A DNA stretch of 64,000 nt from Chloroflexota bacterium (lineage in GTDB: Bacteria > Chloroflexota > Anaerolineae > 4572-78 > J111): the NCBI GenBank assembly GCA_016860845.1, contig BOKF01000006.1, forward strand, positions 186,001-250,000. Direction: 5' to 3'. Made by a program: the position numbers and the translations under genes. Positions 41,860-64,000 of this stretch are shown here, piece after piece. A model generated the notes under the pieces. The model was not told where the DNA came from and searched no databases. It worked only from the letters and a program-made list of their open reading frames with translations. Every line of letters starts with the position of its first letter. The stretch's first letter is position 1.

Positions 41860-42858
41860 ATGTATAACAATCGAATTTTCTCCGAAGGTGTCCATAGTGT
41901 TTTGCTTATTCGCTGGAACCTAAGATGCGAAACGCCTCTTGTTATTCGTAATGGGCTTTCAGTTGGATATACAGAGCCAAAAACACCTAAAAACCGGGGG
42001 CTGAATCTTAAGTTTAAATGGGCGGAGGAAACGGGTGAACATGCCGTTTCCATCCTGCATTATGGCTATGAGGTTAACGATTCAAGTATATCCGCCTATC
42101 ATTTTGTGCCGCCCAGCAGCGTCCGCGGCGCTTTGCGTTCGTGGACTCTCAATCATCTGGGCAAGGCTGATTTTCTCAGTAACATTACACCGCCTCCCCA
42201 GGAAGGTAAAATTCTGTTAGAAGCTTATCTTAATAATGTTCAGGCGGCCCTGGCCGACCGTCGCCATGGATATCAACTGGTGTTCTCTTTATTTGGCCTG
42301 GCTCTTGACACTCAAGATGCGAGCAAGAGGCTGGGAAATGCGGGCCGACTTCAACTTGAGACGGATAAATTTAATCAGGCCGAAGTGCAGCCGATTGCAG
42401 TTAACGGAATTGTTAATCAAGGCCGGGTTGGGCCAGATAACGTAAATCGCCAGATGACGGTACGTAACCCGCTTGATCGGTTAACGCAGGCCTCTAAAGA
42501 GGGTGGGCTGCATCATTTTTTGGAATTCTGTCGGGGCACGTCATTCACGGTGAGAATGTTTATTCTAAATCCGCAGGGCTGCGATCTGGGCCTCATCAGT
42601 TTGTGGCGGCAAGAAATGAATGATGGGCTGCTACGTCTGGGGGCGCTTGCTAATATCGGTCGAGGGCGAGTATGTATAAAAGAAGAGTCCTATGCTCTTT
42701 GGAAAAGGCGGGGTGCGCCAGACCTGGATGGGTTTCAACTTTTTACCTCTGCCGCCAACACTCTTGAGAATGAGGCGCTGGCAGACCTGTGGGAGGAATA
42801 TACCCTTCCGGTGGATAGGTTGGACAACTTTAAAACGTATTTAAAAGCCCATGTTTGA
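41860..42858 (+). CDS. RAMP-superfamily type III effector subunit
   Basis: Protein of 332 residues. ATG 41860 is preferred over a GTG 9 nt upstream. It opens with IRWNLRCETPLVIRNGLSVG, followed by FVPPSSVRGALRSWTLNHLG (the RAMP S-x-R-G-A-L motif), FSLFGLALD, MTVRNPLDRLT, and the closing Gly-rich LGALANIGRGRVCI. It is a Cas7-like subunit diverged from its two neighbours. The subtype-specific name cannot be fixed by eye. Confidence 0.7.
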   Translation: MYNNRIFSEGVHSVLLIRWNLRCETPLVIRNGLSVGYTEPKTPKNRGLNLKFKWAEETGEHAVSILHYGYEVNDSSISAYHFVPPSSVRGALRSWTLNHLGKADFLSNITPPPQEGKILLEAYLNNVQAALADRRHGYQLVFSLFGLALDTQDASKRLGNAGRLQLETDKFNQAEVQPIAVNGIVNQGRVGPDNVNRQMTVRNPLDRLTQASKEGGLHHFLEFCRGTSFTVRMFILNPQGCDLGLISLWRQEMNDGLLRLGALANIGRGRVCIKEESYALWKRRGAPDLDGFQLFTSAANTLENEALADLWEEYTLPVDRLDNFKTYLKAHV

Positions 42859-42869
42859 GGTAACACACT

Positions 42870-44261
42870 ATGCATAATCCCAATCCGTTCGATTTTGTGC
42901 CGTTTGCGGCTAGTGGGCCGCTATTGAGAACGCCTGACGAATATGAGGCCCTGAGTAAGCTTCGTCTGAGCGGCTATCTGGAGGTTAAGATTAAAGCTTT
43001 GACGCCGGTGCATATTGTGGGCTATCAACAAGGGGGTGAAAGCGTGGGCCAAAGCTTTTTTTACAGCCAAAACAATCAGCCTTGTATCCCGGCAGCCTCG
43101 ATACGCGGTTGCTTACGCGCCTTTATCGAAGCGCTGACATCGGGTTGGGTTTCACAGGCTAACCTGGAATATCCGAAGGAATACCAGGAACACCATGTTG
43201 GATTTAGTGCTTTTAAAACTAATCCTAAATTCGAGCCGCAAACACGGCAGGACAAAAAGATTGATGTTGCTGCTTATCTTTTTGGCCGAGTCATTGAACC
43301 AAAGAATGACGCTCAAAAAAATCACAAAGATTTGGCCCGAAAATCCAAAATATGGATTGAAGATGCTTTTATTGATAAGATGCATATAGTAGACAACAAG
43401 TATTGGATACCTGATATTGGCGGTGATGCTTTTATGGGCGGGGCCAAACCAAGTGCCTCAAACTGGTGGTATTTGCAGCCCCGTGAAATCTGGCAACGTG
43501 ACTCTCCTGGGGGTAAAACAGCGGAGTTCATTGGAGATAAGTTCTGGGGCCGCAAATTTTACTTTCATCAAGACCCTTTGAAATGTGTAAAGTATTATGA
43601 TCCTGCTACTCAGAACTGGTCTTATCGAAAAAAGAGTCCTTTTTATCGTGTTCAGTTAGAATGCCTGGAACAGGATGTAATAACTGATTCTTTTCGTATC
43701 TATTTTGATAAAGTGCCTGAACCATTGGTCACATTGTTCGTTTTATGCCTGCTGCCCGGTAAAAATATCCGCCATAAATTGGGTTATGGCAAAGCTTTTG
43801 GCTATGGTTCCATTGAATTTTCGCTTGAAGCAGCCCGCCTTCGTAATGATAATGCCAAATCACGTATTCCCGCTCCTCTGACAGATTTAACGAATGTGAT
43901 TCGTGGTTTGAGCGAACATGCCTGGGACAAGGCAAAATTGAAGACATCAAACCTCGATGAGACCTTAATTGACTGGGAAGCCCTCGAACACCTGGCCCGA
44001 GTCCTGGGCTGGCAGGATTACGACAAACTGTTGTTTACTTATCCACCATTTAAAGAAGGTTATTTCGCGACGCCTGTTAAATTTAAGGAATTTATAAGTA
44101 ATGTGCCTGCAGGAGTTACAACTACGCCTCCTGTTAGCGTGACTTCTGACCAGGCGTGGCAAATTGCCGAAAAATTATTTAATAAAAAAAAGCCACTCCA
44201 CTTCCACTACTACCAAGAAAACGCTGAGGGGTGGTCTATCATTTCTGATCGTAAACCCTGA
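42870..44261 (+). CDS. Large RAMP-superfamily type III effector subunit
   Basis: Protein of 463 residues. After a 35-residue N-terminal extension it has LEVKIKALTPVHIVGYQQGG, PCIPAASIRGCLRAFIEAL and, near residue 300-320, HKLGYGKAFGYGSIEF, the Gly-rich RAMP loop. A long insertion with several Trp, Lys and Gly residues (about 95-260) separates these and a 130-residue C-terminal extension follows. The size and insertions resemble the large RAMPs of type III-D-like loci. It ends 4 nt before the S-4TM effector gene. Confidence 0.7.
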   Translation: MHNPNPFDFVPFAASGPLLRTPDEYEALSKLRLSGYLEVKIKALTPVHIVGYQQGGESVGQSFFYSQNNQPCIPAASIRGCLRAFIEALTSGWVSQANLEYPKEYQEHHVGFSAFKTNPKFEPQTRQDKKIDVAAYLFGRVIEPKNDAQKNHKDLARKSKIWIEDAFIDKMHIVDNKYWIPDIGGDAFMGGAKPSASNWWYLQPREIWQRDSPGGKTAEFIGDKFWGRKFYFHQDPLKCVKYYDPATQNWSYRKKSPFYRVQLECLEQDVITDSFRIYFDKVPEPLVTLFVLCLLPGKNIRHKLGYGKAFGYGSIEFSLEAARLRNDNAKSRIPAPLTDLTNVIRGLSEHAWDKAKLKTSNLDETLIDWEALEHLARVLGWQDYDKLLFTYPPFKEGYFATPVKFKEFISNVPAGVTTTPPVSVTSDQAWQIAEKLFNKKKPLHFHYYQENAEGWSIISDRKP

Positions 44262-44265
44262 AACC

Positions 44266-45393
44266 ATGCCATCTAAAACTGATCTGCAAAATTTAATCAT
44301 GACCCACCATCGCCGCTTGCAGAAGCTCAAGCAGCAAGAAGCTCTGTCAGGTAGGTCTACCGAACCCGAAATCCTGATCGAAATAGAAGATATTGAAAAA
44401 ACGCTGGCAGAGTTGCAAGGGGAGCTAAAAGAAATAGAAGATGCTGATCGGATAGAGGCAAATGGAGATTTAACACCGCTGTCTGATACTGATGACCAAT
44501 CAAGCGATCGAAATCTAAATCAGATCCCCTCGCGTCAAAATCAAAAACAATTTCTGCAATATCTTGCCGCGCAGCGCCAGCTTTACGACGAAGAAAAACG
44601 ATGGATGGGTGTCTGGACGACGGTCACCGTTGGTGCGGCTATTTTTGGAACCGGCGCGCTGGCAATTTTTGTGCCGTTCACACCCTATATCACCCTGATT
44701 GCGGTGTTGTTGATAGTGGGTGAATTTTGGGTGCTGTCATTTATAAAAAAATGTGGACAGGATGCTGCTAAAATCCAGGAAGTTTTTGACTGCGAGCTGC
44801 TTGAAATGCCCTGGAATGAGGTATTGGGGGCTAAGCCAAAACCGCAAACAATTTTGGCTGCTGTTGAGCGCTTTGATAAACAGAGAAATCCTTCAGAATG
44901 GAAAAAGCTAAAGAATTGGTATACCCCGTCTGTGGGCACTTTACCTTTTGTTCAGGCTCGGGTTGCTTGCCAGAAAGAAAATATTTGGTGGGACTCGCAA
45001 CTGCGCCGTGAATACGCCCGCTGGGTATATTTGGCAACTACAATAATTCTTATTGTTATTGTTTTAATTGGCATTATTGCCAATTGGAATTTGCAGCAAT
45101 TTTTTCAAGGACCGCTGCTGCTGGTATTACCTGTTTTAGCCACCGGATTCAAACTTGCTTACGATCATCAAAAAGCTGCGGAAAGATTGGATGATCTCCA
45201 TGAATTTAGCGAACATTTGTGGCAAGAAGCCTCTTCTGAAACCGCCAACCAGGATACAATCACACAACGTTCGCGCCAATTACAAGATGAAATTTTTCGC
45301 CATCGAGCTGAGGATCCCCCTGTTCCCTCCTGGTTTTATAAATTGCGAAAAAAAATATATGAGGATTGGATAAAAAAAATACTGGGCAAGTAA
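44266..45393 (+). CDS. S-4TM family putative pore-forming effector
   Basis: Membrane effector of 375 residues. The start at ATG 44266 follows the RAMP stop by 4 nt. The N-terminus is a charged coiled coil (about 15-60). Four hydrophobic segments lie near residues 107-128, 131-150, 255-277 and 283-300. Between pairs lies the landmark of SMODS-associating 4TM proteins: YLAAQRQLYDEEKR before the first pair, and NWYTPSVGTLPF, then ARVACQKENIWWD and SQLRREYARW before the third helix. S-4TM proteins are predicted to form pores and kill or arrest cells when a nucleotide second messenger is made. No CARF-domain protein is visible in the locus, so this is the likely output arm of Cas10 signalling. Confidence 0.78.
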   Translation: MPSKTDLQNLIMTHHRRLQKLKQQEALSGRSTEPEILIEIEDIEKTLAELQGELKEIEDADRIEANGDLTPLSDTDDQSSDRNLNQIPSRQNQKQFLQYLAAQRQLYDEEKRWMGVWTTVTVGAAIFGTGALAIFVPFTPYITLIAVLLIVGEFWVLSFIKKCGQDAAKIQEVFDCELLEMPWNEVLGAKPKPQTILAAVERFDKQRNPSEWKKLKNWYTPSVGTLPFVQARVACQKENIWWDSQLRREYARWVYLATTIILIVIVLIGIIANWNLQQFFQGPLLLVLPVLATGFKLAYDHQKAAERLDDLHEFSEHLWQEASSETANQDTITQRSRQLQDEIFRHRAEDPPVPSWFYKLRKKIYEDWIKKILGK

Positions 45394-45426: not shown

Positions 45427-46464
45427 ATGACAACCAATCCACAGCAGATAAGCCAACCAGAGAGTAACAAGTTGATTCATGTCCCCCTATCACAATTCAT
45501 CCCTACAAAATTTTCTCTGGCCCGGTATGAACTAACCTTAGAAGCCTTGCAGTTGCTGCAACTTTCTCCCCTTAAGGGGACCTCCTTACGCAGCGGTTTT
45601 GGACGTACCCTCAAAAAGCTGGTTTGTTGTCATCCCCGTTTATGCAAGAAAACATGCACATTGGGTAAGTCTTGTCCTTATAGTTATATTTTTGAAACAG
45701 CGCCTCCCGTTAACGCCGAAGTTCTGGCAAATCTTAGTGAAATCCCTCGTCCCTTCGTAATTCAATCTTCCCATGATTTGAAAACTACTATCGTCCCCGG
45801 TGAGCAATTCGTATTCGGCTTAACCTTAATTGGAACGGGTATCAAATATCTTCCTCTTTTTTTTCACGTATTTTACGAGTTAGGTAAAGTTGGTTTGGGA
45901 TATACACAAGGGCAGTATCGATTGCTTTCCGTAGAGACCATTTTTTCTAATGGTCAGATAAAATCTATTTACAACGCCACTGACCAATCAATTTGGGGCG
46001 TCGACTCTACTATGTATGCAGAAGCAATCATTGCCCGCGCCGCTACCTTGCCTACCGATCGTATTACACTCAATTTTCTCACCCCAACGCGATTAAAACA
46101 TCAAGGGAAGTGGATAGAGCAAGGACCCCCTTTTCAGGCGTTAATCAAAGTTTTGTTAGGGCGAATTTCTTCACTCAGCTATTTCCATTGCGATGAACGA
46201 TTGAATGTTGATTTTCGAGGTCTGATTGACCGAGCAGCCCAGGTCCAGGTGGTAAACTGTGAAACTCATTGGGAGGATTGGACGCGCTTTTCAATGAGAC
46301 AACATCAGGAGATAGAAATAGGTGGTCTTGTGGGTATGATTACATATGAAGGTGATTTGCGAGATTACTTACCCTTCTTAGCTCTGGGTGAACTGATCCA
46401 CGTGGGCAAAGGAGCCGTTTTTGGCAATGGCCGGTATCAGATTATTGACCCAGCCAAAATTTGA
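45427..46464 (+). CDS. cas6: Cas6-family pre-crRNA endoribonuclease
   Basis: Protein of 345 residues. It has an N-terminal RAMP half with SLRSGFGRTLKKLVCCHPRLC and a Cys cluster (CCHPRLCKKTC, KSCPYSYIFET), a middle SLSYFHCDERLN segment with a His, and the C-terminal Gly-rich loop VGKGAVFGNGRYQI. This layout is typical of the Cas6 variant common in Chloroflexota and other thermophile-related lineages. It processes precursor crRNA within repeats. No CRISPR array lies in the window, so the array must be elsewhere. Confidence 0.82.
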   Translation: MTTNPQQISQPESNKLIHVPLSQFIPTKFSLARYELTLEALQLLQLSPLKGTSLRSGFGRTLKKLVCCHPRLCKKTCTLGKSCPYSYIFETAPPVNAEVLANLSEIPRPFVIQSSHDLKTTIVPGEQFVFGLTLIGTGIKYLPLFFHVFYELGKVGLGYTQGQYRLLSVETIFSNGQIKSIYNATDQSIWGVDSTMYAEAIIARAATLPTDRITLNFLTPTRLKHQGKWIEQGPPFQALIKVLLGRISSLSYFHCDERLNVDFRGLIDRAAQVQVVNCETHWEDWTRFSMRQHQEIEIGGLVGMITYEGDLRDYLPFLALGELIHVGKGAVFGNGRYQIIDPAKI

Positions 46465-48186: not shown

Positions 48187-49974
48187 ATGATAAATCTATG
48201 GCGATATTTTAGCTTAGGCGCCCGTTTCCGTCGAGTCAAACGACGACTTTTTGGTTGTTGTTTGCTCATTTTGTTTTGTTTTATTCTGGCCTGCGCGCTC
48301 CTGGTCGGGCTATCACTATATCTGGCTCAAATAGCCGCGGCCCAAGAAACTGCGGCGGCGCCAAATCAGGTCATGCTGGTCATTGATAATAGCAATTCAA
48401 TGTACGAAAAAAATGGCCAAGGGAGTGATCCCGATTTACTCCGTATCGAAGCGGCCCGTTTATTTATCACCTACCTGGGCGCTGATGACCAGTTGGTGCA
48501 TCAACTCGGTGTGATTTTTTTCGGCGGTGAGAGTCATCTTATCGCTCCGTTTACCCCTCTCGCCGATGAAAACCGTCGGATGGAACTGGCTCGTCTCATC
48601 GCCAACCCCACCCGATTGAAGTGGACGAACCAGCAAGCAGCGCTTGAACTGGCGGAACAAACCTTTCAGAAAGCTGCAACCACGCCGGGACGACGGGCGG
48701 TGATTCTGCTCACCGACGGCAAACCCGAATGGAGCAACCAGCCTACCGCTTTGGAAAAGATGGCAATCATCGCCGGGTTGCGTGAAACCGCTCGGCGATT
48801 GGTCGCCCAGAATATTGCCGTTTTTGTCATCCTGCTTCAAAACGAGTCCACTGATGCGGACCCGGAGATTGAAACTATCTATGTTCCTCTCTGGCAGGAA
48901 TTGGCAGCTCAAACCCCGCCCGGCCGCTTTTATCGTGCCCGACAAAGTAATGAACTGCTGGACATCTACCATGATATTGTCGTTACGCTGACCGGGCGGG
49001 CAACTGCCGGAATTATTGTCCAAACTCAGGTGCAAACCGAGACAGTCGAGCCGGTCACGGTTGAAGCTGGCCTGGCCCAAATAACATTTGTCATCCGCAA
49101 GAGTGATCCAGCGCTGCAGGCCGAGATCATTTCTCCTGGCGGGCAACGCCTCGATTCTAACGGGGCCGGGGTGCAACACGCGGGGCAACCTGGCCAGAGC
49201 CATGAGGAAATTTGGGCGATGAGTTATCCCCCAGCCGGAACCTGGTATGTGCGCCTGAGCGGCCAGGGCACGGTGACGGTTTGGAAAGATTTCCTCCCTG
49301 CTCCGGCCACCCCCACCTTTACTCCCAGCGCAACCGCCACCTCTCTTCCCACCTCGTCCCCTACTGTTACACCCACTGCAACCTTAACCCCTACGCCGAC
49401 GGTTATCCCGCCGACTCCCACGCCAACCCTCACGCCCCAACCAACCTCCACTCGCGCTGCCACCCCTACGTCCAGTCCTACCCCGATCCCCTTAAAGCCG
49501 GCTTCTCACACCTCATTGGCCTGGTGGGTTTTGCTGCCCGTGGCAGTTTTGGCCGTTGGGGGCGGAGGTTGGCTCTGGCTCCAATATCACCAGCCCAAGC
49601 TTTTTTTGACGGGTACATTGCGCCCCCTGGCAGGCGAGGCCAGTTATCCGGCCCGGCTGGACCTTGATAGTTTGGATCGTTGGGAGATCACCCTGGGAGC
49701 AATTCCCCCTGCCGATATTCACCTGCCCCATACGCCAGATCAACTCACCCCGTCAGCTCGCCTCACGGCCCGTCTTGACGCCGATGATCAAACGGGGGTG
49801 GTCCTGACGCCTCTGCCTGGCGAAGCATCTGTTGCGGCGGTAAAGGTCAATAATATGGCGGTCAGTCAGGAGTGGTTCTTGCGTGACGGCGATGTAATTA
49901 CCCTGGGAGGCTATCGCTTTAAATATGAAAATCTACGCCAGCGGGGTAACTGGAAGTATGAAGTAAGGAAGTAG
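48187..49974 (+). CDS. Membrane-anchored vWA protein with C-terminal FHA-like domain
   Basis: Protein of 595 residues. A basic N-terminus precedes a hydrophobic anchor (about 24-47). A von Willebrand A domain follows with MIDAS DNSNS (67-71) and a TDG motif (ILLTDGKPEW). After about 130 further residues comes a Pro/Thr-rich linker, then a second transmembrane helix (about 440-458, WWVLLPVAVLAVGGGGWLWL). The C-terminal about 130 residues end in VKVNNMAVSQEWFLRDGDVITLGGYRFKYEN, the terminal strands of an FHA-like domain, presumably cytoplasmic. A surface sensor-type protein that hands signals to a phosphothreonine-binding or protein-binding domain is a fair guess. It heads a + strand run continuing to the GTPase. 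Confidence 0.7.
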   Translation: MINLWRYFSLGARFRRVKRRLFGCCLLILFCFILACALLVGLSLYLAQIAAAQETAAAPNQVMLVIDNSNSMYEKNGQGSDPDLLRIEAARLFITYLGADDQLVHQLGVIFFGGESHLIAPFTPLADENRRMELARLIANPTRLKWTNQQAALELAEQTFQKAATTPGRRAVILLTDGKPEWSNQPTALEKMAIIAGLRETARRLVAQNIAVFVILLQNESTDADPEIETIYVPLWQELAAQTPPGRFYRARQSNELLDIYHDIVVTLTGRATAGIIVQTQVQTETVEPVTVEAGLAQITFVIRKSDPALQAEIISPGGQRLDSNGAGVQHAGQPGQSHEEIWAMSYPPAGTWYVRLSGQGTVTVWKDFLPAPATPTFTPSATATSLPTSSPTVTPTATLTPTPTVIPPTPTPTLTPQPTSTRAATPTSSPTPIPLKPASHTSLAWWVLLPVAVLAVGGGGWLWLQYHQPKLFLTGTLRPLAGEASYPARLDLDSLDRWEITLGAIPPADIHLPHTPDQLTPSARLTARLDADDQTGVVLTPLPGEASVAAVKVNNMAVSQEWFLRDGDVITLGGYRFKYENLRQRGNWKYEVRK

Positions 49975-52878: not shown

Positions 52879-54987
52879 ATGGCGAATATCCAAATGCAGC
52901 GAACCTTGCTGATCGGCCTGGGCAAAGCCGGAGCCAAAACAAATGAGGCTCTGCTGGCCGAATTGGCCCACCGGTTTGGGGAGGTGATGATTATTCAAGG
53001 CGTGGCGGTAGTGACCGAAGAAATTGCAGCCACACCCTTGTTAATCTCGCCAGAAGCAGGTTTTACCGCCTGGCAGGACGACTTTGACCGGCGGGTAAAG
53101 TCAGCCTTGGGCCAGATCTCTCAACTTAACCATCTGCCTCACTTGCTCCGTCTGGGTGTTAACCTGCGCCGGCCTGAGGAAATCCATATCATCGTGGTTG
53201 CAGACCTGACTGAAACCTGGACATGGCCTGTCATTGCTCAACTAACAGATAGACTGCGCGACACCGTGGAACGCACCCTGGCCTGCTTGGCGGGTATCAC
53301 GGGAGTATTGCTCTACCCTGGCCCGCTTGAACCCGACGAAATGGGGGCAAGTGAGCCGGGGGAGGTAGCTACTCTCGCCAGACACTTTGATCGTGGCTGC
53401 TTTCTGGCCGGGATGACGAATGAGGTTGGATTAATTATTGGCGATGCCAATGGCCTCATTGAGGCCACAGCCGGTTTTCTGGTCCTACTCCTTACCGAGG
53501 CCCCGGCCGCCGGGTTAGACTGGGAAGAGAACAGTCTCGGCGATTGGGACACGACCCTATCCAGTTTTGGCTTTGCCGGTGTACGCTGGCCTGATGATGA
53601 CCTGATTAGAATTTTGAGCGCGCGGTGGAGTGAGGCTTTGCTTCAGCAGATGTTCACCCCGCCCCAAGACTCGCCGCAAAAAGGCGACCTGGCCCAGCAG
53701 GCCAGAGAGAGCGTTCAGCAGTGGTTGATCGGCCAGAAATTAAGCCCCCCTGTACTACTTGAACGACTGGCTGCCGTCATGCCGTCCCTACCGAATTATC
53801 TATCCAACCTGGTGGCTGACCCGCCATGGCCGTGGCTGCTGGTTAATACCCAGGCCGACCTTGAACACGCCGCCCAACGCTGGCAGGATGAGTGGCTGGT
53901 GGTCAGCAGAGAGAGACTCATCCCGGCTTTGACAGAACTACGGGCAGCGTGGCTTGAACAGGCTGAAACCTGGCTGGCCCAACCCCTGGCTCAAAATCGC
54001 CCAGGCGCAGTTCTGATTGCTCAGAGTTATCTGGCGGAGATGAGCGATATGCTGGAGGCTTTTATTGAAGGCGTGGAGCAAAAAAAGGAAGAAGCCGAAA
54101 TGGACCTGGCCGACCTTGACCAGCAGCTAGGTCAAGCGGCCGAAACTATGGCTCAAAGCGTGGCTGGCTTTCCTGCTTCCCCGCTCAGTATGTTTTTCTT
54201 CTGGAGCAGCCGTCCTTTGAAATGGCCGCATTATTGGCTCAGATGCCGGCAGGCTCAAACCAGCGCCCGCAGCTTTGCTCATCTAAACCGGGGACGCTTG
54301 ATTACCTGGCAAATGGTTTCCTATTACGAAGAGTTATTGCCCTTTTATCGGCAGCTTTTGGCGGATTGGCGTGAGCTGGTCGAAAAATGGAGCCGCACTT
54401 GCCAGCAGGTGGTCAAAGCCTCAACCTCCGCCAGCCTGACCGATTGGCCCGAACAATTGGAACGTTGTTTAGAGAGATCAAGCGGTCCCTGGGATCAACT
54501 GTTGATAGCAGCCCTATACCAGGAGACGCTTGAGTTTGACTCCAAACGGGTACAGGAGCAGATGGGAACGCTGAACGAATGGGTCGTCGAGGCGATGCAG
54601 GCCGAAACCATCCTGGCTCGTTTACTTGAACAGACGGCCCAGGCGCTTACGCCGGTGATAAAGATGGCGGTAGATCAAGCGGTAATCCGGCAGTTACCGG
54701 ATGAAAGAGCCAGGGCCAATTGGTTAGCTGGCCTGGTAGAGCTGGCGCGTCCTTTTTGGCGCTACGATGAAACAACACTGGTCGAGCGTTCGCGCGTCCA
54801 GGTCCGCCTGGAAAGCTGGCTCCTCCTACCCGGCGGGGAGGCCTCACCCCTGGCTCCACTGGCTCAGACGCTCAGCCAGCCCCCTAGGTTGCTGCCCAGC
54901 CGCCAACCTGGGGAGTTAGGGCTGGTCACGCTGCGGCGAATACAGTGGGGGATGGAGATGAAGGAGGTGGATACCCTGGAACGGTAA
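52879..54987 (+). CDS. Tubulin-module partner protein
   Basis: Protein of 702 residues. It begins with LLIGLGKAGAKTNEALLAEL, a Rossmann-like loop comparable to the GLGGTG loop of the preceding tubulin-like protein, then HIIVVADLTETW. No GGTGS signature follows, so it may be a diverged tubulin-like partner without GTPase activity. The C-terminal half is helical, with a coiled coil around EGVEQKKEEAEMDLADLDQQLG. It sits 13 nt after the tubulin-like gene and 71 nt before the GTPase. Not assigned to a named family. Confidence 0.55.
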   Translation: MANIQMQRTLLIGLGKAGAKTNEALLAELAHRFGEVMIIQGVAVVTEEIAATPLLISPEAGFTAWQDDFDRRVKSALGQISQLNHLPHLLRLGVNLRRPEEIHIIVVADLTETWTWPVIAQLTDRLRDTVERTLACLAGITGVLLYPGPLEPDEMGASEPGEVATLARHFDRGCFLAGMTNEVGLIIGDANGLIEATAGFLVLLLTEAPAAGLDWEENSLGDWDTTLSSFGFAGVRWPDDDLIRILSARWSEALLQQMFTPPQDSPQKGDLAQQARESVQQWLIGQKLSPPVLLERLAAVMPSLPNYLSNLVADPPWPWLLVNTQADLEHAAQRWQDEWLVVSRERLIPALTELRAAWLEQAETWLAQPLAQNRPGAVLIAQSYLAEMSDMLEAFIEGVEQKKEEAEMDLADLDQQLGQAAETMAQSVAGFPASPLSMFFFWSSRPLKWPHYWLRCRQAQTSARSFAHLNRGRLITWQMVSYYEELLPFYRQLLADWRELVEKWSRTCQQVVKASTSASLTDWPEQLERCLERSSGPWDQLLIAALYQETLEFDSKRVQEQMGTLNEWVVEAMQAETILARLLEQTAQALTPVIKMAVDQAVIRQLPDERARANWLAGLVELARPFWRYDETTLVERSRVQVRLESWLLLPGGEASPLAPLAQTLSQPPRLLPSRQPGELGLVTLRRIQWGMEMKEVDTLER

Positions 54988-56440: not shown

Positions 56441-57361
56441 ATGCCTAAATCTCTTTTCTTACCGGCGCCGGCTGAAGCGCAGTTGCTGGCCCACCCGCGC
56501 GGCCTGTTGAAGCAGGTTAAGCCGGATGTGTTGTTTTCTATGGAAGCGTTGCGGCGGGCCTGGCTTAGAGTGAGAGCGGCCGGGGGAGGGGCCGGGGTGG
56601 ATGGCGTGACCATTGAACAGTTTGAGGCCAACCTGGAAGCTAACCTGGTAGACCTGCAAAAAGAACTGTTGGGGGGACGCTACCGGCCCCGCCCGGTCAA
56701 ACGCTTGTTAGCCCCAAAACCCAATGGGGGTTTGCGTCCCCTGGCCTTGTGGACGCTGCGCGACAAGGTGGTGCAGCGGGTGGTACACGATTGTATCGAA
56801 CCATATTTTGAACGCCACTTTCTGCCGTGCAGCTTTGGCTACCGGCCGGGCCGGAATATTGCTCAGGTGGTTGAGGTGGTGATGGCGCACCGGCAGGCGC
56901 ACCGGCGCTGGGTGGCGAATATAGATATCAAGGATTGTTTTGATAGCCTCGACTCAGACCTGCTGCTCCATTTTGTGCGGCAGCAGGTTGCCGACCCCTT
57001 GATTTTGAAGCTGATCAAAGCCTGGCTGAATGCCCGAATTTTTAACGAGTTGTACGGGTTGAAGGCCACTGCCGGCGCTTCGCAGGGGGCGGTGATCTCG
57101 CCGCTGTTGTCCAACATTTATTTGCATCAGGTTGATCTGCTCCTGGTTCAGCAGCAGCATGCCCTGATTCGCTATGCCGACAATATGCTAATTTTTTGCC
57201 GCCATAAAGGAGAAGCTGAGCAAGCGTTGCAGACTGCGGCGGCAGTGCTGCAACAAGTGCGGCTGGAGATCAATCCGCATAAGTCGGGCGTCGTCCATTT
57301 TGACCAGGGGTTCCAGTTTTTAGGCGTTTTCTTTTTACGGAATGAATATTTTCAATTGTAG
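56441..57361 (+). CDS. Stand-alone CRISPR-associated reverse transcriptase (YADN)
   Basis: Group II-intron-like reverse transcriptase of 306 residues, with fingers/palm only. Start has GGAGG upstream. Landmarks: GVDGVTIEQFE, KPNGGLRPLALWTLRDKVVQ, FGYRPGR, motif A VANIDIKDCFD (D162), ASQGAVISPLLSNIYL, the catalytic box YADN (245-248) and NPHKSGVVHFDQGFQFLG. There is no maturase (X) or endonuclease domain. The second Asp of the usual YADD is Asn, which would be expected to weaken catalysis. Located directly before cas1 (an IS630 element now intervenes), it fits the RTs that allow spacer capture from RNA. Confidence 0.82.
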   Translation: MPKSLFLPAPAEAQLLAHPRGLLKQVKPDVLFSMEALRRAWLRVRAAGGGAGVDGVTIEQFEANLEANLVDLQKELLGGRYRPRPVKRLLAPKPNGGLRPLALWTLRDKVVQRVVHDCIEPYFERHFLPCSFGYRPGRNIAQVVEVVMAHRQAHRRWVANIDIKDCFDSLDSDLLLHFVRQQVADPLILKLIKAWLNARIFNELYGLKATAGASQGAVISPLLSNIYLHQVDLLLVQQQHALIRYADNMLIFCRHKGEAEQALQTAAAVLQQVRLEINPHKSGVVHFDQGFQFLGVFFLRNEYFQL

Positions 57362-58567
57362 TAATGCTCAGTTAAGTTAGATTTTACTTAATTTACCAAA
57401 GGGCATAAGCTTATGCCCATGAGCAAACATAGAAGAGTTACCTTAATAACCGAAGATAGAGAACGTCTGGAACAGATCATCCATAGTGGCGATGAACCGG
57501 CTCGAACGCAAATGCGAGCACGGATACTGTTACTGACGGATTACAGTCAAGGAAACCATTGGACCGATGAGGCCATCGCGGCGGCCTTGCTGTGTAGCCA
57601 GAAAACGGTGGTCAATGTGCGGCAACGATATGTCGAGGAAGGCTTGGAGGCAGCGTTGTACGACAAACCTCGACCGGGACAGACCCCCAAACTAACCGGG
57701 GAGGTAGAAGCTAAACTGATCCTGCTGGCCTGTAGTGATCCGCCCGAAGGCTATGCCCGCTGGACGATGCGGCTGTTGGCCGATAAACTGGTGGAACTAG
57801 AGGTGGTGGAAGAAATCAGCCACGTGGCAGTCTGGGAGCGGTTAAAAAAAACGAACTGCACCCCTGGCGGGTAAAAAGCTGGTGTATTGGGCAACCCTCG
57901 GCTCGATTTGTGGCCAAGATGGAAGATGTCTTGGAGGTGTATCATCGGCCTTATGACCCCAAACGTCCGGTGGTTGCTTTAGATGAAATCAGCAAAACCC
58001 TGCACGATACGCCGCAGGGCACGTTACCGATGGAGCCGGGTCAAGTGGTTCGCCAGGATTATCAATTCACCCGCAATGGTAGTATCAACCTGTTTATGAA
58101 AGTTGAACCCCTGCGAGGCTGGCGGAAAGTCCGGGTGACGGATCGGCGCACCAGTCTCGATTTTGCCGAGGAGTTACGCAGTTTGGTGGATGAGGATTAT
58201 CCCCAGGCTGACAGGGTCGTGCTGCTCACGGATAACCTTAACACTCATAGCCCGGCTTGCCTGTACGAAGCTTTCCCACCGACTGAAGCCCGCCGGATTA
58301 CTGCCAACCTTGAGTGGCATTACACCCCTGAGCACGGTTCCTGGCTCAATGTGGCCGAATGTGAACTGTCAGTCTTGGCGCGTCAGTGCTTAAATCGCCG
58401 TATCCCGGATAAGGAGACCCTTATTCCTGAAGTGGCCGCCTGGGAGCAAAAGCGAAATGCCGCACAGGTAACCATCCAGTGGCAATTCACCACCGATGAT
58501 GCTCGCATCAAACTTAGACGTCTCTATCCAGTTATTAAAGAGCAAAATTCAACTTAACTGAGCAGTA
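57362..58567 (+). mobile_element. IS630-family insertion sequence
   Basis: Perfect 14-bp terminal inverted repeats TGCTCAGTTAAGTT (57365-57378) and AACTTAACTGAGCA (58551-58564), one base inside flanking TA dinucleotides (57362-57363 and 58566-58567), the TA target duplication expected of IS630/Tc1-mariner. It landed in the heptamer tract between the reverse transcriptase and cas1, immediately after the RT stop codon, so neither gene is broken. Confidence 0.92.
57413..58557 (+). CDS. IS630-family transposase, made by -1 frameshift
   Basis: Two overlapping frames encode one transposase. The first (57413-57874) has the N-terminal HTH part (IAAALLCSQKTVVNVRQRYVEEG). The second (57910-58557, one frame back) has the DDE core: VVALDE (first Asp), VVLLTDNLNTH (second Asp) and WHYTPEHGSWLNVAE (last Glu), the IS630 pattern. 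The frames join at a run of eight A (57844-57851): slipping back one base after TTA AAA AAA gives NELHPWR, the expected continuation. This fits programmed -1 frameshifting, common in IS630, so the element may be active. Confidence 0.85.
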
Positions 58568-58640
58568 AGGAGTAAGAAGTAGGGAGTAAGGAGTAGGGAA
58601 TGAATTTCTGACCCCCTTACTCCCTACTACCTACTCCGAA
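58568..58640. repeat. Inverted heptamer tract upstream of cas1
   Basis: AGTAAGG/AGTAGGG-type heptamers, a short spacer, then the reverse complement TTACTCCCTACTACCTACTCC. It can fold as a long hairpin just before the cas1 Shine-Dalgarno. The IS630 inserted at its left edge. Confidence 0.6.
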
Positions 58641-58651
58641 ATGGAGGTAAA

Positions 58652-59656
58652 ATGGCTCCAGTTTATGTGCGAGAACAGGGCGCGGTGGTGCGGCGGCGGG
58701 GCGAGCGGCTGGTGGTGACCCGCGAGCAGAAGGAGCTGCTGGATTTGCCGTTGATTCACCTGGATCAGTTGGTTCTATTTGGTAATGTGCAGGTAACTTC
58801 GTCCGCAGTGGCGATGCTGCTGCAGGCTGAAGTGGATGTGGTTTTTTTGTCGCTCTACGGCAAGTTTAGAGGCCGGTTGATGCACACCGGCTCCAAGTTT
58901 GCCCAGTTACGCCATGCTCAACTAAAAAAAATGAGCCACGAGCCGGCTAATCTGGCTATTGCCCGCCAGGTGGTGGTGGGCAAAGTGCATAATCAACGAG
59001 GACTGTTGCAGGCCCGGTTGGGGGAGGCGAGCAGCGTTATGCCGGTTCAGCAAGCCATTAGCAGTTTGGGCCGCCTGGTAGGGCAGGCGCAACAGGCGCA
59101 ATCCCTGGACTCGCTGCGCGGGTTTGAAGGGAGCGCCGGGGCTGTTTATTGGGGCGCTTTTCAACGCTTGCTGAAAGCCAACCTGGGGTTTCAAGGGCGT
59201 AAATACTTTCCGCCGCCCGACCCGGTAAATGCTTTGTTGAGTTTTGGTTACAGTTTGCTGTTAAAGGATGTTACGGCTGCGGTGCAGTTGGTAGGGCTGG
59301 ACCCTTTTCTGGGGTTTTTTCATACCATTGATTATGGCCGTCCCTCGCTGGCGCTGGATATGATGGAGGAGTTTCGTCCGGTGCTGGTGGATGGGCTGGT
59401 GTTGGGCTTGGTGAATGAGGGCCAGATGACCGCCGCCAGTTTTGAACAAACGGCCAACCCCAAGTTGCCGCTGCGCTTAACCGAGGCGGCGATAGACCGG
59501 CTGATCGAAGTGTATGAAAAACGCCTGGGCGAACCCGTAGCGCATCCAGACGCGGGTGGACAGACCTCGTATCGGCGTGCGATTGAACTGCAAGTGCGCC
59601 GCCTGGCCCGGGTGGTATTGGGTAAGGCAAAAGATTATGAACCGTTTGTGGTGTAG
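58652..59656 (+). CDS. cas1: Cas1 integrase
   Basis: CRISPR spacer integrase of 334 residues. The start follows GGAGGTAAA. The N-terminal beta-domain (1-90) opens VYVREQGAVVRRRGERLVV, then LVLFGNVQVTSSAVAMLL. The catalytic helical domain carries E159 in RGFEGSAGAVYW, H224 in GFFHTIDYGRPS, and D236/E239 in LALDMMEEFRP; these are the conserved metal-binding residues. It looks fully intact and is not fused to the reverse transcriptase. The genes on either side (RT, RNase H-like, Cas2) suggest a type III RT-linked adaptation module. Confidence 0.95.
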   Translation: MAPVYVREQGAVVRRRGERLVVTREQKELLDLPLIHLDQLVLFGNVQVTSSAVAMLLQAEVDVVFLSLYGKFRGRLMHTGSKFAQLRHAQLKKMSHEPANLAIARQVVVGKVHNQRGLLQARLGEASSVMPVQQAISSLGRLVGQAQQAQSLDSLRGFEGSAGAVYWGAFQRLLKANLGFQGRKYFPPPDPVNALLSFGYSLLLKDVTAAVQLVGLDPFLGFFHTIDYGRPSLALDMMEEFRPVLVDGLVLGLVNEGQMTAASFEQTANPKLPLRLTEAAIDRLIEVYEKRLGEPVAHPDAGGQTSYRRAIELQVRRLARVVLGKAKDYEPFVV

Positions 59657-59795
59657 TAGGGAGTAGGGAGTAAGGAGTAGGGAGTAGGGCGCAGGCAGAA
59701 ATCAGTGGCCAGATTGCTACCCTGCTACTTGTTACCCTGCGCCTCTGCGACCTTGTTACCCTGCTACTTTGCGACCTTGCTACGCTGCCATTTAA
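59657..59795. repeat. Heptamer tracts (AGTAGGG and CTACCTTG-like)
   Basis: Five successive AGTAGGG/AGTAAGG units follow the cas1 stop at once. Later the gap holds CTACCCTG/CTACTTG/CTGCGACCTTG units. No gene seen. Confidence 0.6.
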
Positions 59796-59807
59796 AAGGA
59801 CAAAGCG

Positions 59808-60245
59808 ATGAATGCAACGATCGAGAGACGACCTGATTATTTATCTATCTATTGTGATGGGGCGATTGGTGAGAGGAGACGAGCTACGGGGCTGGGGGTG
59901 ATCATCCGAAATGAGCAAAATGAGATTGTCGGGTTGGTCAAACGGAGTATGCCGGCCATGAAGAGTGTTGAGGCAGAATATGCGGCTCTGGTTTTGGCCC
60001 TGGAAACGGTCCAGTCCTTTCAACCGCGTTATTTACAGGTTTATATGGATTGCCAGGTAGTCATTGGGCAGATGCAGGGCCGCTATGCGGTAAACAGCCC
60101 TAACCTCAAGCGCTGGCACATTCAAGCCTGCCGCCTGGCGCACCGCTATCCAACCATCACTTACCATTTTATCCCCCGCGAGGCCAACCGCCTGGCCGAT
60201 GCCCTGGCGAACGAGGCGTTAATGGAACGTCTGAGCAGCAGCTAG
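59808..60245 (+). CDS. RNase HI-like ribonuclease in the adaptation module
   Basis: Protein of 145 residues with the RNase HI (RVT_3-type) fold and all four acidic catalytic residues: D17 in YCDGA, E57 in SVEAEYAAL, D81 in VYMDCQVV and D131 in NRLADALA. Strand YLSIYCDGA and the GLGVIIRNEQNEIVG turn are typical. RNase HI cuts the RNA strand of RNA-DNA hybrids. Lying between cas1 and cas2 and downstream of a reverse transcriptase, it is well placed to clear RNA from RT products before integration. It is not fused to another domain. A housekeeping RNase H that happens to lie here cannot be excluded. Confidence 0.85.
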   Translation: MNATIERRPDYLSIYCDGAIGERRRATGLGVIIRNEQNEIVGLVKRSMPAMKSVEAEYAALVLALETVQSFQPRYLQVYMDCQVVIGQMQGRYAVNSPNLKRWHIQACRLAHRYPTITYHFIPREANRLADALANEALMERLSSS

Positions 60246-60258
60246 TACACTGTCAGTG

Positions 60259-60354
60259 TTCAGTAGATCACAGATTTAAGCTCAGAGGGGGTCTGCGACC
60301 CCCGGACGCCGGTCGCAGACCGGCTTGGAGCGAACAAAATTGTGATCTGCTGAA
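60259..60354. repeat. MITE-like element with 14-bp inverted ends
   Basis: TTCAGTAGATCACA (60259-60272) and TGTGATCTGCTGAA (60341-60354) are inverted repeats with one mismatch. Inside, GGTCTGCGACC (60290-60300) and GGTCGCAGACC (60311-60321) are mutually inverted, giving nested hairpins. The 96-bp unit is in the gap between the RNase H-like gene and cas2. Confidence 0.6.
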
Positions 60355-60382
60355 TTTACGATTTACGATTAAGAAGATAAGT

Positions 60383-60682
60383 ATGTTTGTTGTGATCAGT
60401 TATGATATTCCTGATGATAAACGCCGGAATGAGGTCTTTAAAACCCTCAAGGATTATGGGGCGCATGTTCAGTACAGTGTGTTTGAGTGTGACCTGAAGC
60501 CGGAGGTGTTTCGCAAACTGCGTCAGGAATTGAAGGAGATTATCAATAAAGAGGAAGATAATGTTCGCTTTTATGTGTTATCGGAAGAAGACCTGAAGAA
60601 GCGCCGGATCTGGGGACAAGAGCGGACCGAGGCAGAGGTGCGGCCGTTTTATCTGGTGCGGAGTTCCGGGAGTAAGGAGTAA
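60383..60682 (+). CDS. cas2: Cas2
   Basis: Small adaptation protein of 99 residues with the ferredoxin-like Cas2 fold: MFVVISYDIPDDKRRNEVFK (D8 in the first strand), YGAHVQYSVFECDL, and FYVLSEEDLKKRRIWG. Cas2 dimers bridge two Cas1 dimers in the spacer integration complex. Length is typical. It closes the adaptation module; a heptamer tract and a small-RNA promoter follow. Confidence 0.95.
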   Translation: MFVVISYDIPDDKRRNEVFKTLKDYGAHVQYSVFECDLKPEVFRKLRQELKEIINKEEDNVRFYVLSEEDLKKRRIWGQERTEAEVRPFYLVRSSGSKE

Positions 60683-61539: not shown

Positions 61540-64000
61540 TCAGTCTTCCCAGGTTTGACCGTCTTCGTCGGGGCGAGGAACCAGGGTTATCTCCTGAATG
61601 CGATCCAGGCGAAAGACCCGCTCGGCCTGAGCAGTGTGGCAAAAGCCGACGAGATAGGGAATGCCCGATTTTGGATTTACGATTTTGGATTTCGCTTTGC
61701 GCGCCTCCGGCGGATTTACGATTTCAGACATCGTGCCCTTTGGGTATTTACGATTGCTGTCTTCCATCCTCCATCCACTATCTTCTATCTTCTGCTTCCT
61801 CGCCTCTTCGCCTCCTCGCCACTCCAGGCGATAGGGTTCGACGACCCGTCGGGCGAGCCGGTCAGTCCCGGCAGTGTAGTACAGCAGGTCAAGATTTTGG
61901 GCCGAAGCCAGCGCTGTCTGAATAAGGGGAACAGTTTCTTCAAGCGGCAGACCGGCTTCGGGCCAGGCCGGAAAAATGGCTCGCCCCTCGATCACCTGCT
62001 GCAGCTCGGCCAGAACTTGCCCGGCAGCGCTCTCAGCAGCGCTTAAATTGGCGGAATCGGCCAGGCCGGCGACCTGATCGAGCAACGCCTGCGGCAGGCG
62101 AACCGGCAGGCGGAGAAAGCGACCCAACTCCTGGTAGACCCGGCAGGTGAGCCAGAGGAAGGATGAAGGATAAAGAGTTTCATCCTTCATCCTTCTGACT
62201 TCATCCTTTGGCGGGACGCCTTCCTGTTCGGTTAAACGGTTGACTAGCTGATTGAGCCGGGCCGGATCAACCACAATGACGCGGGGGGACAGAGTTTGCC
62301 GGATGAGGGCGCGGCCTCGCCGGGTTGAGGCCAGACGGGTAATAATGGCCGGATCGCTCGTTTCCAGCAGCGTGGCAGGGCGGATGGTGACGCGTTCAGC
62401 CAGGTCGGCCCAAACATGGAGCAGGGTTATTTCCTGGGGGGTTAAAGGTCGTTCCACCAGCCGGTTAAGCGCATCGAGCAGGGCCGGGGGCGACCAGTTG
62501 CGTTGGAGGACATTGATAAAACTGATGGCGGTAATTTGATAGCAGAGGCGCAGCCCCACGGGGAGGCTTCGCTCGGGAGCAGGGGGGCAGGGGCGATTTC
62601 TCCTCTGCTCTTCTGCCTCCCTACTTCCTACCTCCATGGCCACCATCAAATCCAACGGCTCCGGCAGGCCGTTTTCGATGGTCATGGTAAAGGTGCTGTC
62701 GAGCGGGTCGGACTGCAAATTGCTTTGAAGCCGGAATTTGGTGTAGGGCGGTGGTGCTGGGGAGAGGGGGTGGGTGAAGGGTGAAGGATGAAGGATGAAG
62801 GATGAAAAAACTCCGCCTTCCGCCTTCATCCTTCCGCCTTCATCCTTTAATAGAACTCCCAGCCAGACCAGAGGACCGGTGAGAAGTTGTTCAATTGTCT
62901 CGACCAGCGTTTTAATAGGGTCAAGTAGATTGGCCGGAACCAGTTCAAGCAGTGCAGGGGTACGCATCAGGAGGGTACGGGCAAAGTGAATGGGGTCGGT
63001 GAGGTCCAGTTCAATCAGGGCTTGATGGAGGGGGTCCAGCAAGCGAACCGGATTGGCCAGCCACTCGTGTCCGGGCAGGCGGTAGGCCCGCCATAATTCC
63101 GGTTGGGGAGCGCTCCAGGTTTGCCAGAGCTGCCGTAGCCGCGCTTCTCGTCCGGCTTGAAGCCAGAGCCAGGTGGCAGGGGTGGGGGTCAGTAGGGGCG
63201 GGGGGTCAAGGGCCGGGGGCCGAATATCGGCAGCCGGTTTCTGACCCCCCGCCCCTGACCCCTGACCCCCAATCCAGCCGGCGCTTTCGGCCAGGTAGTG
63301 GATGAAACGGCGGCGGCCGGTTTGCAGTTCGCTGCGGGCCGCGGGTGAGGTGGGTGGAACGGCGCAGCATTGACCCCATTCTTGCAACAGGCCGGGCGGC
63401 AGCCAGCGCCCGTGCCAGGGCCGGACATCAGCGGTTTGGAATAGCGCCAGCAGACAGGTCAGATCGTGGCAGAACATGTCAACGGGGGGGAAGGGGAGGC
63501 GAGGAGACGAGGAGGCGTGAGGCGAGGAGGCGAGGGAACTCTCTTTCTTCGCGTCCCCGCGTCCTCGCGCCCTCGCCTCCTCCTCACTGGCCTGGGCCAG
63601 GATGTTCCGAAGGGGTGGGATGAGGTCGGTGGGAATAAAAATTTCCTGGGTAGGGCGATGGTGAAAAATCAGGCCCAGGGCGCGCAGTCGTTCTAACGGT
63701 GAAAGGGGCGGGATGCCGGCGGCTGCGGCGGCAGGAATGGTCCGGGCGGGATAATGGGTCGGAAGCTGGCGGAAGGACCGAAGTGAACCGTAGAAAGGCT
63801 GCAAGTAACGCAGCGGGACGCTGCCTCCGGCGGTGAGCAGGCCGACCAGGGCCTGGCGTTCTTCTAACGGCAGGCCGGTCAGGCAGGTCTCCAGGTCGGA
63901 CGGATCGGGTAAGTGAGCGGACAGGCGTTCAACCAGATCGGCTTTGCTGATCTTAGAGGAGAGCGAGAGCCCCCGCTGTCGGCCTATGAACAGGAGTAAG
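61540..64000 (-). CDS. WYL / XPB-N-like domain protein, 5' part outside the window
   Basis: The frame is open from the right window edge (it reads ...SKISKADLVERLSAHL... there) to the stop at 61540, so at least 820 residues are present and the start lies beyond 64000. A TTG at 63804 is not a likely start because coding sequence continues upstream. The C-terminal part (about the last 150 residues) has LDLLYYTAGTDRLARRVVEPYRLEW and YLVGFCHTAQAERVFRLDRIQEITLV, the WYL-domain layout. The middle (TRLASTRRGRALIRQTLSPRVIVVD) resembles the XPB/Ssl2 N-terminal helicase-associated domain. Several low-complexity insertions made of heptamer or inverted repeats interrupt the protein without breaking the frame. 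WYL proteins usually sense ligands and regulate transcription. Confidence 0.72.
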   Translation of the reverse strand, partial: LLLFIGRQRGLSLSSKISKADLVERLSAHLPDPSDLETCLTGLPLEERQALVGLLTAGGSVPLRYLQPFYGSLRSFRQLPTHYPARTIPAAAAAGIPPLSPLERLRALGLIFHHRPTQEIFIPTDLIPPLRNILAQASEEEARARGRGDAKKESSLASSPHASSSPRLPFPPVDMFCHDLTCLLALFQTADVRPWHGRWLPPGLLQEWGQCCAVPPTSPAARSELQTGRRRFIHYLAESAGWIGGQGSGAGGQKPAADIRPPALDPPPLLTPTPATWLWLQAGREARLRQLWQTWSAPQPELWRAYRLPGHEWLANPVRLLDPLHQALIELDLTDPIHFARTLLMRTPALLELVPANLLDPIKTLVETIEQLLTGPLVWLGVLLKDEGGRMKAEGGVFSSFILHPSPFTHPLSPAPPPYTKFRLQSNLQSDPLDSTFTMTIENGLPEPLDLMVAMEVGSREAEEQRRNRPCPPAPERSLPVGLRLCYQITAISFINVLQRNWSPPALLDALNRLVERPLTPQEITLLHVWADLAERVTIRPATLLETSDPAIITRLASTRRGRALIRQTLSPRVIVVDPARLNQLVNRLTEQEGVPPKDEVRRMKDETLYPSSFLWLTCRVYQELGRFLRLPVRLPQALLDQVAGLADSANLSAAESAAGQVLAELQQVIEGRAIFPAWPEAGLPLEETVPLIQTALASAQNLDLLYYTAGTDRLARRVVEPYRLEWRGGEEARKQKIEDSGWRMEDSNRKYPKGTMSEIVNPPEARKAKSKIVNPKSGIPYLVGFCHTAQAERVFRLDRIQEITLVPRPDEDGQTWED
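61659..63596. repeat. Repeat insertions inside the WYL-type gene
   Basis: Separate tracts lie within the reading frame at about 61665-61830 (GATTTTG/GATTTAC and TATCTTC heptamers), 62156-62210 (GAAGGAT and its complement), 62571-62640 (inverted, ends in CCTCCCTACTTCCTACC), 62765-62850 ([A/G]TGAAGG then the complement CGCCTTC/ATCCTTC), 63181-63272 (GGGGTCA/TGACCCC) and 63486-63590 (GAGGCGA-type and complement). Each is inverted or tandem with a 7-nt period, and all keep the frame open. Confidence 0.65.

What the first reader, a model, noticed from the sequence alone, without database searches (positions are those of the whole stretch)
56441..60682. RT - Cas1 - RNase H - Cas2: a complete RNA-to-spacer adaptation set
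A stand-alone RT, Cas1, an RNase HI-like enzyme with all four catalytic acids (D17, E57, D81, D131) and Cas2 lie in order. RT-Cas1 systems acquire spacers from RNA, and removing the RNA strand after cDNA synthesis is an unassigned step; an RNase H in the operon would supply it.
Basis: partly seen in the sequence, partly recalled or inferred. Interest (0 to 1): 0.85.

Follow-up and report, generated by a model that had tools for sequence, protein, structure and literature searches.

The report
RNase H built into RNA-sourced CRISPR memory
A lineage of Chloroflexota CRISPR systems keeps an RNase H gene beside a reverse transcriptase, cas1 and cas2, which suggests that this enzyme helps turn captured RNA into new CRISPR memories.

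Summary
RT (56441-57361), Cas1, an RNase HI-type protein with D17/E57/D81/D131 and Cas2 lie in order on the + strand. An unmentioned IS630 (57362-58567) sits between RT and cas1, and the RT motif reads YADN (YADD, FADD or YVDD in all other readable relatives but one).

The association recurs. From Cas1, I examined 112 places in 396 genomes: 26 with RT and RNase H, 19 RT only, 1 RNase H only (contig begins inside cas1), 66 neither. All RNase H carriers in the Cas1 tree fall in one clade: 33 of 43 rows, or 27 of 36 counting Cas1-first places only; outside it 0 of 83. Two gene orders occur. The RNase H co-diverges with Cas1 and RT and is under purifying selection.

The locus is larger: type III RAMPs, Cas6, a 4TM effector, and VWA, Tubulin_2, DUF697-GTPase and WYL genes. 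No CRISPR array was found in the window.

Most likely the enzyme removes RNA from RNA/cDNA duplexes during spacer acquisition: inferred, not shown. Other RT-cas1 groups searched lack it, so it is not universally needed. A 2022 hot-spring Cas1 survey lists RNase H-like, DUF697 and DUF370 neighbours in passing; the passages seen do not mention RT.

The parts
56441..57361 (+). stand-alone reverse transcriptase, 306 aa, group II intron-like, motif YADN
57362..58567 (+). IS630-family element between RT and cas1; 27-nt inverted ends, transposase in two frames (57413-57874, 57910-58557)
58652..59656 (+). Cas1, 334 aa
59808..60245 (+). RNase HI-type protein, 145 aa, D17/E57/D81/D131
60383..60682 (+). 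Cas2, 99 aa
54945..56303 (+). GTPase with DUF697 domain, conserved upstream of RT in part of this clade
52879..54987 (+). 702-aa protein without Pfam match; relatives in L001 and L143
50070..52865 (+). Tubulin_2 (PF13809) protein, conserved in part of this clade
48187..49974 (+). VWA-domain protein, conserved in part of this clade
61540..63804 (-). WYL-domain protein, relatives near the cas genes in part of the clade
45427..46464 (+). Cas6
44164..45393 (+). S_4TM effector-domain protein (domain from residue 119; true start probably later)
39008..44261 (+). four type III RAMP genes (39008-40840, 40882-41838, 41851-42858, 42870-44261)
36000..37595 (+). possible divergent Cas10 (reads GGDE; Cas10-Cmr2_palm2 only E 0.024, below cut-off); the ORF is stop to stop

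Best explanation
This is the adaptation module of a type III, RT-using CRISPR-Cas system, probably of a Chloroflexota bacterium by its kin, and the RNase H is a dedicated, inherited part of it. Most likely the RT copies captured RNA (or RNA already joined to the leader-repeat end by Cas1-Cas2) into cDNA; the RNase H cuts and removes the RNA strand of the hybrid; the RT or a host polymerase makes the second DNA strand; and Cas1-Cas2 completes insertion as double-stranded DNA. Shown by sequence: membership of the module, intact catalytic acids and predicted fold, co-inheritance with Cas1 and RT, purifying selection. Inferred: hybrid cleavage, its timing before or after integration, RNA-derived spacers, and that the YADN RT of this copy still works. 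I put membership of the module at about 0.95 and the RNA-removal mechanism at about 0.55-0.6.
For: (1) Recurrence: 35 loci with RNase H in an RT locus, counting the window and three RT contigs outside the Cas1 tree (L009, L011, L263). (2) Cas1-first survey, 112 places: RT+RNH+ 26, RT+RNH- 19, RT-RNH+ 1, RT-RNH- 66. (3) Cas1 tree of 126 rows: one clade of 43 rows (SH-aLRT 99) holds all 33 RNase H carriers; none of 83 rows outside it. Part of the 43 had been found through the RNase H; Cas1-first places alone give 27 of 36 in the clade. (4) Two arrangements: between cas1 and cas2, or upstream of RT, there mostly with a RemA-like gene between. (5) Tight packing: in L001 the RNase H domain begins 5 nt after the cas1 domain and ends 9 nt before that of cas2; in L014 it overlaps cas2. 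(6) Distance correlation Cas1-RNH r 0.83, RT-RNH r 0.78 over 32 loci. (7) dN/dS of RNase H 0.06-0.19 in eight of nine pairs run, one without an estimate; pairs share members and two of the eight have high dS, 1.8-2.5. (8) Catalytic acids invariant in 61 of 61. In 38 locus copies (36 linked, plus L005 and L010) E57 and D81 are kept in 38, D131 in 37, D17 in 33 with 5 trimmed, of which four show a D. (9) Type III RAMP genes in the same window and in 33 of 40 related genomes searched, on the cas1 contig in at least 14 by my reading of a cut list.
Against: The RT-RNase H link is essentially one lineage, so the Fisher p of 2.6e-12 counts kin; the independent-pairs test gave no support (2 usable pairs that differ in RT, none with a difference in RNase H). 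The second RT+ clade (10 RT+ rows) and 11 of 11 RT-cas1 places of another phylum have no such RNase H in the DNA held. Inside the clade four rows lack it with its usual place visible: L145 and L148 (a RemA-like gene stands there), L165, and L244 (RT and cas1 look broken). Of these genomes two have no profile match anywhere, two only weak ones elsewhere. In the L005 genome it lies 16.5 kb off and on the other strand. PMC11014452 argues that pre-integration RNase H would yield spacers without the dN tails that its enzyme needs (passage). The window's RT reads YADN and an IS630 splits the gene run. No spacer source was found: 207 spacers gave one 24-nt partial match in held loci once copies of the same place were set aside, and one L007 array none in phages.
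Confidence: 0.58

Rival explanations
1. The RNase H acts on R-loops: it clears RNA:DNA hybrids at the transcribed array leader or on invader DNA, so that Cas1-Cas2 can reach DNA. It would help adaptation from DNA and not serve the RT product itself.
For: RNase HI enzymes cut RNA/DNA hybrids in general (family knowledge); RemA-like genes, a DNA-binding family by recall, often lie beside the RNase H.
Against: Places without a relative of this RT almost never carry it: 1 of 67, and that contig begins inside cas1. A general leader role would predict it there too.
Confidence: 0.17
2. The RNase H is a prespacer trimmer: it shortens the RNA part of RNA-DNA chimeras or hybrids to set spacer length, in the place of Cas4 or DnaQ-type trimmers.
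For: Spacers beside RNase H-positive loci lie in a narrow range, 34-43 nt, median 37, in 207 spacers. Whether Cas4 is present was not searched.
Against: RNase HI is an endonuclease that needs a hybrid; it does not measure length by itself (family knowledge). No data separate this from full RNA removal.
Confidence: 0.12
3. The RNase H belongs to the neighbouring VWA - Tubulin_2 - DUF697 GTPase gene group, and its seat in the adaptation operon is a matter of inheritance.
For: DUF697 in 26, Tubulin_2 in 23, VWA in 15, WYL in 16 of 42 clade rows other than the window; 0 of 83 rows outside.
Against: In both gene orders the RNase H stays inside or beside RT-cas1-cas2, and several RNase H loci show no Tubulin_2, VWA or DUF697 relative in the DNA held (L002, L004, L008, L180, L207), though some of those contigs are short and single-sequence searches can miss relatives.
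Confidence: 0.08
4. A housekeeping RNase H gene that lies beside cas genes by chance.
For: 200 of 400 genomes of the phylum hold a similar RNase H; 26 of the 30 best matches show no RT or cas gene in their short flanks.
Against: 27 of 112 cas1 places against roughly 0.3 expected; co-divergence; linked copies group apart from 25 of 26 putative housekeeping rows, on a weakly supported split (75/95). The 26th, L105, proved to be linked too (L263).
Confidence: 0.02

Closest known systems
RT-Cas1 adaptation modules of type III CRISPR (Marinomonas mediterranea RT-Cas1; Thiomicrospira Cas6-RT-Cas1, 7kft)
   Same: RT of the group II intron lineage with Cas1 and Cas2; type III RAMP genes and Cas6 in the same window
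   Different: RT is a separate gene; an RNase HI gene sits in the module; GTPase, Tubulin_2 and VWA neighbours, and RemA-like genes in relatives
RT-CRISPR-9 group (Chloroflexi, RT unfused) of Toro 2017, PMC5541045 (passages seen)
   Same: phylum of the relatives and unfused RT
   Different: 3 RTs listed; a word search of that text finds 'ribonuclease H' only in a reference title; whether this RT belongs to that group was not tested
Hot-spring unclassified Cas1 clades, PMC9755687 (passages seen)
   Same: reports RNase H-like (26 ORFs), DUF697 and DUF370 genes as prevalent non-cas neighbours
   Different: no link to RT and no mechanism in the passages; its supplementary tables were not seen
RNase H1 of LC11 (3u3g, 4h8k) and the Rv2228c RNase H domain (3hst)
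   Same: fold and the four catalytic positions
   Different: not CRISPR-linked so far as known to me; about 28-33% identity in the structure matches
Retroviral RT with RNase H domain
   Same: works like it: RT and RNase H in one pathway; Foldseek also finds the HIV-1 RNase H domain
   Different: separate genes, different RT lineage; an analogy, not a membership

Membership tests
Ribonuclease HI (type 1 RNase H) | D-E-D-D active site | tested here: met
   (61 of 61 for all four); locus copies; L014 has H at position 131
Ribonuclease HI (type 1 RNase H) | RNase H fold | tested here: met
   predicted model
Ribonuclease HI (type 1 RNase H) | cleaves RNA in RNA/DNA hybrids | not testable with these tools
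   biochemistry needed
RT-associated CRISPR adaptation module | group II-like RT fused or adjacent to cas1, with cas2 | tested here: met
   an IS630 lies between RT and cas1 in the window, while L001 and L143 leave no room for one there
RT-associated CRISPR adaptation module | YxDD catalytic motif in RT | tested here: inconclusive
   window YADN; L154 YADN; all other readable relatives YADD, FADD or YVDD
RT-associated CRISPR adaptation module | CRISPR array nearby | tested here: not met
   none found in the window, which ends 3.3 kb after cas2; arrays lie on the same contig in many RNase H-positive relatives
RT-associated CRISPR adaptation module | spacers taken from RNA | not testable with these tools
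   no useful protospacer matches
Type III CRISPR-Cas | RAMP (Cas7/Cas5) genes and Cas6 | tested here: met
Type III CRISPR-Cas | Cas10 | tested here: inconclusive
   36000-37595 reads GGDE; Pfam palm2 E 0.024, below cut-off
Subtype III-D | subtype-specific RAMP set | tested here: inconclusive
   best PADLOC models are Csm4 of III-D and Csm3 of III-A/III-D
RT-CRISPR-9 (Toro 2017) | RT falls in that clade | not tested
   I had no sequences of that group at hand

The most novel reading that the evidence does not exclude
A CRISPR adaptation machine that makes double-stranded DNA spacers from RNA by its own RT and RNase H cycle, as retroviruses do, with a RemA-like protein in many relatives as a possible DNA-shaping factor at the leader, and with a Tubulin_2 - VWA - GTPase apparatus of unknown role attached to it: a distinct lineage of RNA-sourced CRISPR memory in Chloroflexota.
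Probability: 0.45. Interest if true: 0.9.

Novelty: new variant of a known kind. Interest (0 to 1): 0.77.

Why it matters
How RNA captured by RT-Cas1 systems ends up as double-stranded DNA in the array is unsettled; PMC11014452 lists RNase H digestion plus second-strand synthesis as a route not completely excluded (passage). A lineage that keeps an RNase H inside the RT-cas1-cas2 locus makes that route testable with point mutants, and might give a better RNA recorder than RT-Cas1 alone. The conserved Tubulin_2, VWA, GTPase and RemA-like neighbours add a second open question.

Tried and rejected
Chance neighbour: rejected. Inactive RNase H: rejected for the family by conserved acids and dN/dS. 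RNase H as a general cas1 partner: rejected (1 of 67 places without a relative of this RT, a cut contig). Two independent recruitments of the RNase H: not shown; the linked copies form one group in the tree, but its deep branches are weak and four Bacillota rows on a long branch fall inside it. RT truncated by the IS630: rejected; the stop codon precedes the element and several kin RTs are 291-308 aa between stops. Independent-pairs test for RT and RNase H: too few RT changes to say anything. Spacer source: one L007 array against phages gave none; 207 spacers against held loci gave one 24-nt partial match once copies of the same place were set aside. RNase H against phage records gave none; viral contigs gave two weak relatives without RT or cas. 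Cas1 against plasmid records at E 1e-60 gave one Rhodothermus record, not looked into. Literature: 10 searches; in the listings and passages that I saw no paper reports an RNase H gene at RT-cas1 loci. Word searches in PMC5513706 and PMC6013744 found no RNase H; one paper looked for by DOI is not held. Several listed papers were not opened (among them PMC11127173, PMC5576922, PMC6361761, PMC8649781, PMC4782391), so absence from print is not shown.
Full report
What was checked. The RNase H is a 145-aa type 1 enzyme. Its 119 relatives split into a coherent set (P0001-P0096, 42% identity or more to the query, some of them fragments) and distant ones (36% or less). In an alignment of the window copy and 60 of these relatives D17, E57, D81 and D131 are invariant. 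The AlphaFold2 model has mean pLDDT 93.5 and its best PDB matches are RNases H, among them one solved with an RNA/DNA hybrid (4h8k).

What the finding does not mention. An IS630-family element with 27-nt inverted ends fills the space between RT and cas1 (57362-58567). It begins directly after the RT stop codon, so the RT is not cut; several kin RTs are 291-308 aa between stops. The RT motif is YADN; of the other readable relatives only L154 shares this. No CRISPR array was found in the window. Upstream lie four type III RAMP genes, a protein with an S_4TM effector domain, Cas6 and a possible divergent Cas10 whose Pfam match is below cut-off. Between these and the RT lie VWA, Tubulin_2, an unassigned 702-aa protein and a DUF697 GTPase.

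Recurrence, RNase H first. Of the 13 highest-ranking loci other than Bacillota (L001-L012, L014; twelve from Chloroflexota by record title or taxonomy, and L010), 11 have an RT in the same locus; L005 and L010 do not. In L005's genome the RNase H lies about 16.5 kb from cas2, on the other strand, on the same contig as RT-cas1-cas2 and RAMP genes. The other rows, mostly Bacillota, have no such neighbours (L022 has cas1 and cas2 8 kb away).

Recurrence, Cas1 first. To avoid choosing by RNase H, the window's Cas1 was searched in 396 genomes of the class of G001, drawn from a larger group, with at most five candidates scored per genome: 112 places in 98 genomes at E 1e-60. All 112 were fetched with up to 9 kb on each side, and RT, Cas1, Cas2 and RNase H were scored by profile (the RT profile was built from relatives of the window's RT, so unrelated RTs would be missed). 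Counts: RT+RNH+ 26, RT+RNH- 19, RT-RNH+ 1 (L159, whose contig starts inside cas1), RT-RNH- 66; Fisher p 2.6e-12. Four of the 98 genomes (G001, G008, G012, G013) had also come up in the RNase H-first scan. With at least 3 kb on both sides of cas1 the counts are 10, 3, 0 and 24 of 37.

How far kinship explains this. A tree of 126 Cas1 rows holds the window, the RNase H-first loci, the 112 places less four copies, and eight weaker or further Cas1 of the named genomes. All 33 RNase H carriers fall in one clade of 43 rows (SH-aLRT 99). Counting only the Cas1-first places, the clade has 36, of which 27 carry RNase H. Of the ten rows without it, five contigs end where the gene would lie (L149, L162, L168, L211, L221), one is the L005 genome (row L257), and four are absences with the place visible (L145, L148, L165, L244). 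A second clade has 10 RT+ rows and no RNase H. RT changes on the tree are only 3, so RT and RNase H cannot be tested as independent traits, and the Fisher p must not be read as such. What the tree does show is retention across deep divergence: median identity 44% for Cas1 and 38% for RNase H over 32 loci.

Signs of joint function. Two gene orders occur: 23 rows after cas1 and 12 before RT in the tree set, plus L263 before RT. The surveyed places keep one strand for cas1, RT and RNase H. Distances of RNase H follow those of Cas1 (r 0.83) and RT (r 0.78; each reached by none of 999 permutations). dN/dS of RNase H is 0.06-0.19 in eight of nine pairs run; one pair gave no estimate, and dS is high (1.8-2.5) in two of the eight. 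In 38 copies (36 linked, plus L005 and the unlinked L010) E57 and D81 are kept in 38 and D131 in 37 (L014 has H); D17 is seen in 33, and in the five where the match was trimmed a D can be read in four (L154, L157, L160, L161) while L012 has a frame break there.

A wider locus. A RemA-like (DUF370, PF04025) gene lies beside the RNase H in many loci: between RNase H and RT in 10 of 13 loci of the second order, and between cas1 and RNase H in part of the first; in L145 and L148 it stands there without RNase H (four of these small ORFs were confirmed by Pfam). None was found in the window by that search. Among the 42 clade rows other than the window, relatives of the window's DUF697 protein are found in 26, Tubulin_2 in 23, WYL in 16 and VWA in 15; among 83 rows outside, in none (flanks differ in length). 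RAMP genes are in 33 of 40 related genomes searched, and in at least 14 on the same contig as cas1 by my reading of a cut list. Arrays beside RNase H-positive loci have repeats of about 37 nt and spacers of 34-43 nt.

Outside this phylum. In 297 genomes of the phylum of G010, 10 genomes hold 11 strong RT-Cas1 places, mostly fused. All 11 were checked with the flanks that their contigs allow, some of them short: none has this RNase H. So the partnership looks specific to one lineage, within the limits of what was searched. No other phyla were searched from the RT or Cas1 side, apart from plasmid records.

Mechanism. [quoted passage not shown] PMC11014452 (passages) names RNase H digestion with second-strand synthesis as a route that cannot be completely excluded, and argues against it for Marinomonas because such spacers would lack the 3'-dN tails. 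A lineage that carries its own RNase H is where that route should be tested. [quoted passage not shown] R-loop removal and prespacer trimming remain open rivals.

Prior notice. PMC9755687 (passages) lists RNase H-like (26 ORFs), DUF697 and DUF370 genes as prevalent non-cas neighbours of unclassified Cas1 clades in hot springs, which fits this locus closely, but in the passages seen it draws no link to RT. PMC5541045 (passages) describes RT-CRISPR-9, three unfused RTs of Chloroflexi. The ten paper searches listed nothing nearer; not every listed paper was opened, and subscription papers are mostly not in that library.

Noticed in passing
window 56441-57361; L154: RT motif reads YADN instead of YADD in the window and in L154, while close kin of both read YADD; either tolerated or a sign of decay.
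   Followed up: partly
window 44164-45393: S_4TM effector domain (PF18159, E 1.4e-73; PADLOC '4TM' effector) directly after type III RAMP genes and before Cas6; it could be a membrane effector of this type III system.
   Followed up: partly
window 36000-39000: Possible divergent Cas10 (GGDE) followed by a DDE_5 transposase ORF (37641-38960, stop to stop) before the RAMP genes.
   Followed up: partly
window 48187-56303: VWA, Tubulin_2, 702-aa and DUF697 GTPase genes in a row; relatives found only with this Cas1 clade in the set examined.
   Followed up: partly
L007 10384-10650, L003 10405-10653, L145 8659-8985 and others: RemA-like (DUF370) gene next to the RNase H in both gene orders; in L145 and L148 it stands between cas1 and cas2 without RNase H.
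   Followed up: partly
window 14828-26137: Conjugation-type genes (TrwB-like coupling protein, Replic_Relax, and a TraG P-loop match below its cut-off) upstream of the CRISPR locus: perhaps an integrated conjugative element.
   Followed up: no
window 30429-33471: Two RRXRR-HNH (IscB-like, by recall) genes with a HEARO RNA (31803-32032, minus strand) between them.
   Followed up: no
window 58557-58600, 59655-59696, 60657-60712: Seven-base repeats (AGTAAGG/AGTAGGG type) follow the IS630, cas1 and cas2; also seen at 49952-49988.
   Followed up: no
L012 9561-10312: The RNase H start lies in another frame than its body: a frame break or an assembly error.
   Followed up: no
L014 8360-8797: The Thermoflexus copy has H at the fourth catalytic position; by recall RNase HI tolerates changes there.
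   Followed up: no
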